A stretch of 64,000 nucleotides of DNA. Source: an uncultured Clostridia bacterium (lineage in GTDB: Bacteria; Bacillota; Clostridia; Christensenellales; Borkfalkiaceae). The notes under the pieces are model-generated. The model saw nothing but the letters and a program-made list of their open reading frames with translations. It was not told the DNA's origin and ran no database searches. The position numbers and the translations under genes were made by a program. How positions within the stretch are numbered: position 1 is the first letter of the stretch; every line of letters starts with the position of its first letter. The stretch covers positions 310,001-374,000 of the forward strand of contig CANQFA010000001.1 of assembly GCA_947597925.1 (NCBI GenBank), in the 5' to 3' direction. Below are positions 57,078 through 60,235 of the stretch, piece after piece.

Positions 57078-57093
57078 GTTAGCAATGGCGAAC
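57078..57093. promoter_or_regulatory. feo dyad 1
   Basis: GTTAGCAATGGCGAAC is one base off a perfect dyad, 28 bases upstream of the feo -35 box. Confidence 0.65.
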
Positions 57094-57120
57094 TTTTTTC
57101 GAAAATTTTTCTCCAAACGG

Positions 57121-57149
57121 TTGACAGGGGGGATGTGACGTGATAAAAT
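57121..57149 (+). promoter_or_regulatory. feo operon promoter
   Basis: TTGACA and TAAAAT are separated by 17 bases. The predicted start of transcription coincides with dyad 2. Confidence 0.88.
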
Positions 57150-57156
57150 GATTACA

Positions 57157-57172
57157 GTTCGCAATGGCGAAC
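57157..57172. promoter_or_regulatory. feo dyad 2
   Basis: GTTCGCAATGGCGAAC has perfect six-base arms around four bases and lies at the expected transcription start, a classic repressor position. Confidence 0.75.
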
Positions 57173-57177
57173 CAACC

Positions 57178-57204
57178 TTCCGCAGGGAGCGGAAGTTTTT
57201 TCGG
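57178..57204 (+). terminator. Intrinsic terminator inside the feo leader
   Basis: The stem CTTCCGC/GCGGAAG with an AGGGA loop is followed by six T residues. It lies between the promoter and the first gene, so it must be bypassed for expression. Confidence 0.85.
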
Positions 57205-57211
57205 GAGATGA

Positions 57212-57227
57212 GTTCGCCAATGCGAAC
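57212..57227. promoter_or_regulatory. feo dyad 3
   Basis: GTTCGCCAATGCGAAC is a perfect dyad directly before the feoA ribosome site (AAAGGAG). In RNA it could pair with dyad 2 over 15 of 16 bases, enclosing the terminator. Confidence 0.7.
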
Positions 57228-57244
57228 CAAAGGAGATCGTGACT

Positions 57245-57457
57245 ATGCCGCTTTTACTCGCACCCATCGGTCGGGAGGTCCGCATCGTGAAGATCGTGGC
57301 GGACGACAAGACCAAAAAGCACCTCTTGAACCTCGGCGTCCTTGTAGACGGGACCATCACCGTGCTCTCTTCGAGCGGGGGGAGTGCCGTCTGCCGCGTG
57401 AAGGACGGGCGGCTCGCGCTGGACCGCAACATCGCCGCGAGGATCTATGTGGCCTGA
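57245..57457 (+). CDS. feoA: FeoA-family protein (first copy)
   Basis: FeoA is a small SH3-like accessory subunit of the ferrous iron transporter. The 70-residue product (MPLLLAPIGREVRIVKI, KHLLNLGVLVDGTITVL, IAARIYV) has the usual L-x-x-LG-V turn. The tracked GTG start at 57239 is too close to AAAGGAG; the ATG at 57245 fits. It is the first gene of a four-gene iron-uptake operon. Confidence 0.9.
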   Translation: MPLLLAPIGREVRIVKIVADDKTKKHLLNLGVLVDGTITVLSSSGGSAVCRVKDGRLALDRNIAARIYVA

Positions 57458-57495: not shown

Positions 57496-57729
57496 ATGAC
57501 AAAACTGCTCAGTGAATTTTCCGTCGGCGAAAGGGGCATCGTGAAGCTCGTTTCGGGCGAAGGAAAGCTCCGCAGGAGGCTCTTCGACATGGGCGTGACG
57601 CCCGGTGCCGAAGTGCTCCTCCGAAAGAAGGCACCCCTCGGCGACCCCATCGAGGTCACCATCCGCGGGTATGAGCTCACCCTCAGAAAGACGGAGGCGG
57701 AGCTCGTGACCATGGAGGTGAAGAGATGA
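57496..57729 (+). CDS. feoA: FeoA-family protein (second copy)
   Basis: This second, diverged FeoA has 77 residues: LLSEFSVGERGIVKLVSG, RRRLFDMGVTPGAEVLL and the basic ending TIRGYELTLRKTEAELV typical of FeoA. The ATG at 57496 follows GGAGG by 11 bases; an in-frame ATG at 57478 lacks a site. Tandem FeoA genes before FeoB are common in Clostridia. Its stop overlaps feoB (ATGA). Confidence 0.92.
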   Translation: MTKLLSEFSVGERGIVKLVSGEGKLRRRLFDMGVTPGAEVLLRKKAPLGDPIEVTIRGYELTLRKTEAELVTMEVKR

Positions 57730-60077
57730 TGAAGTTCGCCTTGGCGGGCAATCCCAACTGCGGGAAGACGACCCTCTTTAACCTCCTCACAGGCTCCACC
57801 GCCTATGTCGGCAACTGGCCCGGGGTCACGGTAGACAAGCGGGAGGGGACCTACAAGCGCGGGGAAGAGCCCGTGAAGATCGTGGACCTCCCCGGCATCT
57901 ATTCGCTCTCGCCCTATACCCCCGAAGAGGTCATCTCGCGCAACTTTATCCTCGATGAGAGGCCCGACTGCGTCATCAACATCGTGGACGCGACCAATCT
58001 CGAGCGCAACCTCTACCTCACCACCCAGCTCATGGAGATCGATGTGCCCATCATCATCGCCCTCAACATGATGGATGCGGTGGAGAAGAGCGGGGACACG
58101 ATCAATGCCAAGGAGCTCGAAGGAAAGATCGGCCTGCCCGTCGTCGCCATCTCGGCGCTGAAGGGGACGGGGATCCGAGAGCTCATGGACCGCGCCGTCT
58201 CGGTGGCAAAGTCGCCGCGTGCGGGCGTCACCGTACTGCATGATTCTCCGCTCGCGCACCTCGTCCGCGATGTCACCATCGCCCTCAAGGGTGCCAAGGT
58301 AGAGGCGCCCCTCTTCCACGCCGTAAAGCTCGCCGAGATGGACGAGATAGAAGTGAAGATGCACCCCGAGCTCGTGGGCATGGTCGACGAATTTAAGGCG
58401 ACCTTCGAAGATGATACCTTCGGCGACGACCTCGAGGCGGTCGTGGCGGATGCGCGCTACAAGTACATCGCTGCGAACTATTCGGCGGTATATAAGAAGA
58501 AGAGCGAGGGCGAAGGACTCTCCCGCTCGGACAGGGCGGACAAGGTGCTGACGCACAGAGTGTGGGGGATCCCCATCTTCCTCGTCATCCTCTTTGCCAT
58601 CTTCCACCTCACCTTCTCGGAGGACTTCCTCTTCTTGAGTGCCATCTCGGGCGGCCTTCCCACCCTTGCCGACCTCGGCTTCGATACGGCCAATCCCGGT
58701 GTCGCCCTCCTCGCCTGCTTCTACGACGGGGCGGTCTTCTCCCCGGGCGTGATGCTCACCAACCTCTTCGGCTGGATGCTCAACTGGGTGTCCGTGCTCA
58801 TCGACCTCATCTGCGGCGGGGCGCCGCTCTGGGTCGGGAGTTTCCTGAATGATGGGGTTTGGGGCGGTCTCTCCGCCGTGCTCGGCTTCCTGCCGCAGAT
58901 CCTCGTCCTCTTCCTCTTCTTCTCCATTCTGGAGGACTCGGGCTACATGGCGCGCGTCGCCTTTATCCTCGACCGCATCTTCCGCAAGTTCGGGCTCTCG
59001 GGCAGGGCATTTATGCCCATGATCATGGGATTCGGCTGCAGCCTTCCCGCCATGATCAATACCCGCACCCTCGCCGACGAAAAGGAGCGCACGGCGACCA
59101 TCCGTGTCATCCCCATGTTCTCGTGCGGGGCGAAGCTGCCCATCCTCACCGCCATCGCGGGGGGCATTGTGCAGGTCTTCGGCGTGGGCAATGCCGACCT
59201 CATCACCTACGGCATGTACCTCATCGGCATCGTGACGGCCATCGTCTGCGTCCTCGTGATGCGCAATACGACGATGCGCGGCGAGACGCCTCCCTTCATC
59301 ATGGAGCTTCCCGCCTATCACCTGCCCCTCTTCAAGGGCCTCATGATCCACCTGTGGGACAAGACGAAGCACTTCGTGAAGAAGGCCTTTACCATCATCT
59401 TTGCCTCCACGATCGTCATCTGGTTCCTCTCCAACTTCTCGTGGAATTGGCAGTTCCTGCCCGAAGAGATCGAGTATGAGGGGGAGGTCATCCTCGCCAA
59501 CCTTCATGCCGACAGGAGCATTTTGGGCTCCATAGGGATGCTCATCCAGCCCCTCTTCACGCCGCTCGGCTTCGGCTCCCAGCTGCAGGCCTTCGGTTGG
59601 GTCTTCGCCGTCGCCGCGCTCACGGGACTTGTCGCCAAGGAAAATGTCATCGCGACCTTCGGCACCCTCGCGGCCTGCGTGGCGGGCGCCTTCATCTCCA
59701 CCGAGGAGGGCGTCGTCGAGGCCGTGACGATGATCGAGGCGACGGGCATCACCATTCCCGCACTCATCTCCTTCATTGCCTTCAATATGACGACGATCCC
59801 CTGCTTTGCGGCCTGCGCCACGGCGAGGGCGGAGCTCCCCGAGGGCAAATTTAAGTGGACCCTCCTCTTCTGGGTCGCGACGAGCTACCTCGTGGGGACG
59901 GCCATCTACCTCATCGGCAGTTGGTGGTGGACGCTCTTCCCCATCCTCGCAGTCGTTGCGGCGGCCGTAGTCGGGATCATCTTCTGGAATAAGAAGCACC
60001 CCATCGAAAAGGAAGGCACCATGTCCGAGGAAGAGACTCTCAAAGAGGCCGCAGCGGCGGACGGAGGCAGCGTATGA
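57726..60077 (+). CDS. feoB: Ferrous iron transporter FeoB
   Basis: FeoB is the GTPase-coupled membrane permease for Fe2+. The 783-residue protein has the N-terminal G domain (G1 GNPNCGKTT at 8-16, G3 DLPG, G4 NMMD), a helical spacer, and two Gate-type membrane regions with the conserved cysteine segments (GFGCSLPAMINTR and PMFSCGAKLPILT). The start overlaps feoA2; a second ATG is adjacent. The length is normal. Confidence 0.97.
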   Translation: MMKFALAGNPNCGKTTLFNLLTGSTAYVGNWPGVTVDKREGTYKRGEEPVKIVDLPGIYSLSPYTPEEVISRNFILDERPDCVINIVDATNLERNLYLTTQLMEIDVPIIIALNMMDAVEKSGDTINAKELEGKIGLPVVAISALKGTGIRELMDRAVSVAKSPRAGVTVLHDSPLAHLVRDVTIALKGAKVEAPLFHAVKLAEMDEIEVKMHPELVGMVDEFKATFEDDTFGDDLEAVVADARYKYIAANYSAVYKKKSEGEGLSRSDRADKVLTHRVWGIPIFLVILFAIFHLTFSEDFLFLSAISGGLPTLADLGFDTANPGVALLACFYDGAVFSPGVMLTNLFGWMLNWVSVLIDLICGGAPLWVGSFLNDGVWGGLSAVLGFLPQILVLFLFFSILEDSGYMARVAFILDRIFRKFGLSGRAFMPMIMGFGCSLPAMINTRTLADEKERTATIRVIPMFSCGAKLPILTAIAGGIVQVFGVGNADLITYGMYLIGIVTAIVCVLVMRNTTMRGETPPFIMELPAYHLPLFKGLMIHLWDKTKHFVKKAFTIIFASTIVIWFLSNFSWNWQFLPEEIEYEGEVILANLHADRSILGSIGMLIQPLFTPLGFGSQLQAFGWVFAVAALTGLVAKENVIATFGTLAACVAGAFISTEEGVVEAVTMIEATGITIPALISFIAFNMTTIPCFAACATARAELPEGKFKWTLLFWVATSYLVGTAIYLIGSWWWTLFPILAVVAAAVVGIIFWNKKHPIEKEGTMSEEETLKEAAAADGGSV

Positions 60078-60235
60078 GTTGGTGGGAGATCCTCATCATC
60101 ATCGCGGCGGCGGCCTTTGTCGCGGGCGTCGCGGTGTGGTCCTTTGTCAAGAGAAAGAAGGGAAAGGGGGGATGCGCGGACTGCTGCGGAAACTGCTGCG
60201 GCTGTGCGGGCTGCTCCCACCCCGAAAAGAAATGA
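60074..60235 (+). CDS. FeoB-associated Cys-rich membrane protein
   Basis: This ORF is absent from the track. Its start overlaps the feoB stop (ATGA). The 53-residue product has one N-terminal span (ILIIIAAAAFVAGVAVW), a basic stop-transfer (KRKKGKGG) and a C-terminal cytosolic tail with eight cysteines in pairs (CADCCGNCCGCAGCSHP). This matches the small FeoB-associated proteins found after feoB in Bacillota, thought to handle or sense the incoming iron. Confidence 0.92.
   Translation: MSWWEILIIIAAAAFVAGVAVWSFVKRKKGKGGCADCCGNCCGCAGCSHPEKK

What the first reader, a model, noticed from the sequence alone, without database searches (positions are those of the whole stretch)
57078..57245. Three near-identical dyads surround a leader terminator in the feo iron operon
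GTTCGC-N4-GCGAAC occurs perfectly at 57157 and 57212 and with one mismatch at 57078. The middle site sits on the expected transcription start, and a full intrinsic terminator lies between sites 2 and 3, before feoA. Sites 2 and 3 could pair with each other in RNA over 15 of 16 bases. This could be DNA-loop repression by an iron regulator, RNA attenuation, or both. The dyad does not match the Fur, DtxR or MntR consensus I know.
Basis: partly seen in the sequence, partly recalled or inferred. Interest (0 to 1): 0.7.

Follow-up and report, generated by a model that had tools for sequence, protein, structure and literature searches.

The report
DtxR-type iron-repressor operators controlling feo
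Three copies of a short mirror-image DNA word in front of a gut bacterium's iron-uptake genes are almost certainly landing sites for a small iron-sensing repressor of the diphtheria-toxin-repressor (DtxR) family that reads an unusual variant of that family's usual word, and a separate, conserved RNA hairpin with a T-run lies between two of them.

Summary
In detail: GTTCGC-N4-GCGAAC is perfect at 57157 and 57212 and has one mismatch at 57078. Three such sites within 150 bp are not a chance event, and the two perfect copies are the only ones in the 1.62-Mb genome. Related feo loci keep the dyads at fixed places around a TTGACA-N17-TAxAAT promoter. In sister species the same dyad sits at other iron-starvation-type promoters (DUF3793-flavodoxin, ABC pairs, YgbA_NO) and at the start site of dtxR operons. 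The host genome has no Fur and one DtxR-family protein (118 aa, iron-type ligands Met9/Cys100/Glu103/His104). The dyad has the geometry of IdeR's single-dimer site (TTAGG-N4-CCTAA). More distant relatives carry GTTAG-N6-CTAAC instead, and this change goes with a change in the repressor's recognition helix (Pro39 to Ser). The best reading is a DtxR/IdeR-type operator cluster with shifted specificity. Site 2/site 3 RNA pairing gets no support (no covariation), and nothing supports DNA looping. The hairpin between sites 2 and 3 does covary, and its T-run ends 8-13 bp before the next operator; whether repressor binding and termination are coupled is untested.

The parts
57078..57093 (.). Operator site 1 (GTTAGC-AATG-GCGAAC), upstream of the promoter, about -78 to -63; followed by T6 (57094-57099) and A/T-rich UP-like DNA
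   Evidence: starts 43-45 bp before the -35 in 47 of 57 aligned feo promoters; directly followed by T4+ in 45 of 47
57121..57149 (+). Sigma-70-type promoter TTGACA-N17-TAAAAT of the feo operon (11 of 12 consensus letters, TG before the -10)
   Evidence: conserved in nearly all related feo loci
57157..57172 (.). Operator site 2 (GTTCGC-AATG-GCGAAC) on the predicted transcription start, 7 bp after the -10
   Evidence: same placement at non-feo promoters
57177..57201 (+). Leader hairpin CTTCCGC-AGGGA-GCGGAAG plus T6: intrinsic-terminator-like element
   Evidence: covarying helix in 19 type-A leaders
57212..57227 (.). Operator site 3 (GTTCGC-CAAT-GCGAAC), about +57 to +72; starts 10 bp after the T-run and ends just before the RBS
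57230..57235 (+). Ribosome-binding site AAGGAG of the first feoA
   Evidence: read directly
57245..57457 (+). feoA-like gene 1 (70 aa)
   Evidence: Pfam FeoA PF04023 E=1e-13
57496..57729 (+). feoA-like gene 2 (77 aa)
   Evidence: Pfam FeoA PF04023 E=1.9e-20
57726..60077 (+). feoB (783 aa), ferrous iron transporter
   Evidence: TIGR00437 E=1e-158, above cut-off
60074..60235 (+). small Cys-rich FeoB-associated protein (53 aa)
   Evidence: PF12669 E=3.1e-4, below the curated cut-off

Best explanation
The three dyads are operators for a short (118-aa) DtxR/IdeR-type, Fe(II)-activated repressor encoded elsewhere in the genome (G000:C4:56852-57205, minus strand). With enough iron, dimers bind TTCGC-N4-GCGAA at site 2 (blocking the start site), site 1 (next to the UP-like DNA) and site 3 (across the early transcribed region before the RBS) and shut off feoA-feoA-feoB. 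With little iron they leave and feo is transcribed. The leader hairpin plus T-run between sites 2 and 3 is a separate RNA element that probably ends or pauses transcripts early and sets a low basal level, possibly aided by a repressor on site 3. Shown here: sites, promoter, conservation, regulon content, linkage to dtxR, operator/recognition-helix co-variation, hairpin covariation. Inferred: that this DtxR binds the dyad, that Fe(II) is the co-repressor, that binding represses, and what the terminator does.
For: (1) 63 of 79 feo loci of relatives carry dyads with <=1 mismatch within 1.5 kb upstream, at fixed positions around the promoter. (2) Across 61 genomes of the genus, 145 perfect dyads against 14 for the reversed control pattern; 49 of 61 have at least one. 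(3) The non-feo sites that were fetched sit almost all at iron/metal-type promoters, most often DUF3793 + flavodoxin, half-ABC transporter pairs, YgbA_NO, FecCD/lipoprotein, HMA; usually one box about 7 bp after the -10 and a second 33 bp on. (4) The box overlaps the start site of an HMA-dtxR operon in about 11 relatives and precedes a dtxR paralogue (L138). Boxes lie between divergent dtxR and feo (L092) or between dtxR and feo on one strand (L104); hit coordinates put dtxR next to feoB in seven order-level relatives. (5) Own genome: no Fur, one DtxR-family protein; orthologue in 90 of 101 congeners. Fur is found in only 19 of 61 congeners, so it cannot explain the boxes. (6) Protein: PF01325 and PF02742 above cut-off, best PDB match DtxR, model pLDDT 91, TM 0.85-0.90 to DtxR/IdeR/MntR. 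Met10/Cys102/Glu105/His106 of DtxR are Met9/Cys100/Glu103/His104 here; sulphur ligands favour Fe(II) (PMC10317159). (7) Geometry equals the IdeR half site TTAGG-N4-CCTAA, and IdeR boxes of repressed genes overlap the start site (PMC10317159). (8) Relatives with GTTAG boxes have Pro39, those with GTTCG boxes Ser39 (12/1 vs 1/5 by lineage, Fisher P=0.003); IdeR Pro39 touches the base that changed. (9) Order-level genomes without dtxR lack the box at feo (0 of 6 vs 17 of 24, P=0.003).
Against: No binding or expression data. Three congeners (G006, G013 and the 95%-complete G048) have boxes but no dtxR was found even with a profile; the gene may be missing from the assembly or another protein may bind. 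Two lineages break the Pro39/box rule (L092: Pro with GTTCGC; G066: Ser with GTTAG). The DtxR tree is poorly resolved, so the co-variation may be only one or two events. In this genome dtxR itself has no box. The IdeR ancillary metal-site residues Glu83 and His98 are replaced (Thr, Glu), as expected without the SH3 domain, while Glu12 is MntR-like, so Mn(II) sensing is possible.
Confidence: 0.86

Rival explanations
1. RNA attenuator: sites 2 and 3 act as RNA, pairing with each other or folding locally, to switch the leader terminator.
For: 15 of 16 possible pairs between sites 2 and 3; the whole leader folds well (z -4 to -5.9); a real terminator-like hairpin is present.
Against: Site 2:site 3 helix shows no covariation, N4 centres are unrelated (P=0.56); half of the site-1 copies and many site-2/3 copies break the RNA stem; site 1 is not transcribed from this promoter; the same dyads occur at promoters without the T-run; site 3 is made only after the terminator is passed; no Rfam family.
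Confidence: 0.04
2. DNA-loop repression: regulator dimers on sites 1, 2 and 3 bridge to form loops.
For: Three operators within 150 bp; site 1 is tightly fixed relative to the promoter.
Against: Site 1-2 spacing of 79 bp is about 7.5 turns; site 2-3 spacing varies 51-58 bp, 33-34 bp in another clade; several lineages lack one site; IdeR dimers bound to DNA do not touch each other (PMC10317159).
Confidence: 0.08
3. Roadblock-coupled termination: a repressor on site 3 stalls RNA polymerase at the leader hairpin/T-run and so makes termination iron-dependent, on top of start-site repression.
For: T4+ run ends 8-13 bp before the next operator in 44 of 57 feo leaders with three unrelated hairpin types; T-runs are specific to feo (17 of 17 against 2 of 16 non-feo operator pairs); hairpin covaries.
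Against: 13 of 57 leaders lack a T4+ run. In 33-bp pairs the spacing may be set by the operators alone. From memory, a roadblock just past a terminator can also inhibit release, so even the sign is uncertain. No transcript data.
Confidence: 0.25
4. The dyads bind a different iron or metal regulator (MarR/IclR-like HTH, Fur or Rrf2 type).
For: Three box-bearing congeners lack a detectable dtxR; an HTH gene with its own box occurs in G026 and G039 (L143, L134).
Against: Fur absent here and in two thirds of the genus; dtxR is the gene linked to boxes repeatedly; operator/recognition-helix co-variation. Rrf2 was not searched.
Confidence: 0.09

Closest known systems
IdeR/DtxR of Actinobacteria (TTAGGTTAGSCTAACCTAA boxes)
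   Same: Family fold, Met/Cys/Glu/His primary metal-site residues, inverted half-sites 4 bp apart, box on the start site of iron genes
   Different: 118 aa without SH3-like domain; TTCGC/GCGAA half-sites instead of TTAGG/CCTAA; several separate single-dimer boxes rather than one overlapping 19-bp box; Ala-Lys-Ser in place of Ser-Gly-Pro, and Arg in place of Gln43
MntR (Bacillus subtilis, E. coli)
   Same: Short two-domain architecture, Glu at the MntR Glu11 position; NCBIfam MntR models match but far below cut-off
   Different: Met and Cys replace Asp8 and Glu99; regulon is ferrous iron and flavodoxin, not Mn transport
TTAG-type feo boxes of other genomes of the same order (GTTAG-N6-CTAAC; found here)
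   Same: Same place around feo promoters, often next to a divergent dtxR
   Different: A instead of C at half-site position 4; repressor has Pro39
Leader intrinsic terminators / attenuators
   Same: GC hairpin and U-run in the first about 45 nt
   Different: No competing antiterminator or ligand domain found; framed by protein operators

Membership tests
DtxR/IdeR family (the regulator) | Fe_dep_repress N-terminal HTH and Fe_dep_repr_C dimerisation/metal domain | tested here: met
   PF01325 37 bits (cut-off 26), PF02742 50 bits (cut-off 27); fold match to DtxR
DtxR/IdeR family (the regulator) | Iron-type primary site Met10/Cys102/Glu105/His106 | tested here: met
   Met9/Cys100/Glu103/His104, invariant in the genus orthologues examined
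DtxR/IdeR family (the regulator) | C-terminal SH3-like domain and full ancillary site (classical IdeR only) | tested here: not met
   118 aa, no third domain; Glu83 is Thr, His98 is Glu; a short MntR-like form, so it is filed as DtxR-family, not as a classical IdeR
IdeR box | 5-bp inverted half-sites with 4-bp spacer (single-dimer site) | tested here: met
   TTCGC-N4-GCGAA; compare PMC10317159
IdeR box | TTAGG/CCTAA letters | tested here: not met
   TTCGC in the window; TTAG-type letters only in relatives
IdeR box | Metal-dependent binding by the regulator | not testable with these tools
   needs footprinting or gel shift
Fur box/regulon | Fur protein in the genome | tested here: not met
   no PF01475 match in own genome, 13 of 14 controls ring; assembly 94.9% complete
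Intrinsic terminator | GC-rich stem, short loop, U-run | tested here: met
   7-bp stem, 5-nt loop, T6; -11.3 kcal/mol; helix covaries
Riboswitch / known cis-RNA | Match to an Rfam family | tested here: not met
   no match at gathering threshold in the window
RNA attenuator by site 2/site 3 pairing | Compensatory changes in the proposed helix | tested here: not met

The most novel reading that the evidence does not exclude
A DtxR-family iron repressor whose DNA word has switched from TTAG to TTCG along with a recognition-helix change, and which on feo acts twice: at the start site and, from an operator placed 8-13 bp beyond a conserved hairpin/T-run, as a roadblock that makes leader termination iron-dependent (or, with opposite sign, that blocks it).
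Probability: 0.25. Interest if true: 0.72.

Novelty: new variant of a known kind. Interest (0 to 1): 0.52.

Why it matters
It assigns an unnamed DNA word to a regulator in a large uncultured group of gut Clostridia, many of which lack Fur, and predicts their iron regulon. It offers a natural test of how a metalloregulator changes DNA specificity: one operator base and one contact residue appear to change together. The conserved operator/terminator/operator layout of feo makes it testable whether a repressor can gate an intrinsic terminator. My paper searches found no description of this motif, but most subscription papers are not held.

Tried and rejected
Rfam scan of the window: nothing. Fur as regulator: absent. 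Site 2/site 3 RNA helix: no covariation. Searching for the missing dtxR in 11 congeners with PF02742 and a profile: only weak, partial HTH matches. DtxR tree to count independent specificity switches: too poorly resolved. Literature searches for the motif, for DtxR with feo and flavodoxin, for IdeR in Clostridia and for DUF3793: nothing on this motif. The other one-mismatch genome matches (L004-L008) and the window's two-mismatch hits look like chance: the counts equal the control.

Full report
Observation. Shuffled windows contain 0.43 sites with <=1 mismatch per 64 kb, and none of 300 had two within 150 bp. In the whole 1.62-Mb genome the only perfect copies are the two feo ones; one-mismatch matches elsewhere are at the control level. 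The promoter TTGACA-N17-TAAAAT (57121-57149) puts site 2 at +1/+2, and the hairpin CTTCCGC-AGGGA-GCGGAAG plus T6 (57177-57201) lies between sites 2 and 3.

Source organism. The congeners include contigs titled Candidatus Gallimonas and 'uncultured Clostridia bacterium' from animal-gut metagenomes (G018:C2 has the length of the Ca. Gallimonas merdigallinarum contig of L075). The downstream operon is feoA-feoA-feoB plus a small Cys-rich protein.

Conservation. I took 79 relatives' feoB loci with upstream DNA; 63 have dyads with at most one mismatch within 1.5 kb upstream. In 57 aligned promoters, site 1 starts 43-45 bp before the -35 in 47. Most first downstream sites start 7-15 bp after the -10, and 14 at 42-48 bp. 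The six outer bases of each half are kept while the central four vary. The commonest departure, GTTCGC to GTTAGC in one half only, breaks an RNA stem but leaves a DNA half-site. Across the genus there are 145 perfect dyads against 14 for the reversed pattern.

Regulon. I fetched the non-feo sites listed for relatives and read the genes downstream. About ten are DUF3793 genes, several seen to be followed by a flavodoxin (PF00258). Others are paired half-ABC transporters, YgbA_NO, an HTH plus lipoprotein/FecCD locus, HMA proteins and one P-type ATPase. Several have the same layout: TTGACA-N17-TATAAT, a box about 7 bp after the -10, a second box 33 bp further, then the RBS. Flavodoxin and feo together point to iron starvation (general knowledge). 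One site near a fructose-bisphosphatase-like gene (L128; identified from memory of the sequence, not by a search) and one in a distant genome (L009) have no evident link.

Regulator. The own genome has no Fur and one DtxR-family protein: 118 aa, PF01325 and PF02742 above cut-off, closest solved relative DtxR, model pLDDT 91 matching DtxR, IdeR and MntR structures. Its ligand set is Met9, Cys100, Glu103, His104, the iron-type set of DtxR (PMC4805248; PMC10317159), with an MntR-like Glu12. Orthologues occur in 90 of 101 congeners; Fur in 19 of 61. In about eleven relatives the box overlaps the start site of an HMA-dtxR operon. In L138 it precedes a dtxR paralogue. In L104 and L092 dtxR lies beside feo with boxes between. 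In G069, G082, G085, G090, G092, G094 and G098 the hit coordinates put dtxR next to feoB. In the window's own genome dtxR lies next to a tRNA-Arg and has no box.

Specificity. IdeR recognises TTAGG-N4-CCTAA as a single-dimer site, and boxes of repressed genes overlap the start site (PMC10317159). The window's dyad is TTCGC-N4-GCGAA. In other families of the order the same feo region carries GTTAG-N6-CTAAC and one locus has GTTAGGTATACCTAAC (L111). IdeR's Ser37 and Pro39 touch the third base of CCTAA, which is the base that differs. Regulators in GTTAG genomes have Pro39; those in GTTCG genomes have Ser (12/1 against 1/5 by lineage, P=0.003). The exceptions are L092 and G066. The tree is too weak to count independent switches. 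Order-level genomes without dtxR have no such box at feo (0 of 6 against 17 of 24). These P values ignore shared ancestry.

RNA layer. The hairpin between sites 2 and 3 is real: in 19 leaders of the window's type, five of seven pairs show double changes and 92% of cells pair, against 32-53% when slid. Other clades keep a hairpin and T-run in the same place by other means: the site-2 dyad followed by T4-6, or an AAAGCGC...GCGCTTT hairpin. Where a T4+ run exists (44 of 57 leaders) it ends 8-13 bp before an operator. Operator pairs at non-feo promoters mostly lack it (2 of 16 against 17 of 17). The leader element is therefore a feo-specific addition. I regard start-site repression as the main mechanism. 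Repressor-gated termination is plausible but unproven, and its sign cannot be told from sequence.

Weak points. G006, G013 and G048 have boxes without a detectable dtxR. Metal identity, binding and direction of regulation are inferred. Conservation counts come from draft metagenome assemblies of uneven completeness. The rival confidences overlap: roadblock-coupled termination would add to, not replace, the best explanation.

Noticed in passing
57078-57099 and relatives: Site 1 is followed directly by a T4+ run in 45 of 47 relatives and often preceded by an A-run, so the operator dyad could double as a terminator for read-through from the upstream gene or as part of an UP-like element.
   Followed up: partly
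L118, L119, L122, L123, L129, L131, L132, L136, L140, L144: DUF3793, a family of unknown function, repeatedly heads a box-controlled operon, several times followed by a flavodoxin: a likely iron-starvation protein.
   Followed up: partly
L149, L150, L154, L155, L158, L159, L163, L037: dtxR sits behind a small heavy-metal-associated (GMHCGMCEAHV) protein gene under a box-overlapped promoter; the window's genome lacks this arrangement.
   Followed up: partly
G048 (L016, L127): A 95%-complete congener keeps feo boxes but no DtxR-family gene was detected; it has a Fur.
   Followed up: partly
L101, L102, L112, L114, L115, L116 upstream of feoA: More distant feo promoters carry other dyads (ATATGAA...TTCATAT class) around the same TTGACA promoter, suggesting a different regulator.
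   Followed up: no
L134, L143: A 126-aa HTH protein with weak Fe_dep_repress similarity has its own box and neighbours a lipoprotein/FecCD gene; one FecCD reading frame (L143) runs into a repetitive leucine-rich-like stretch.
   Followed up: no
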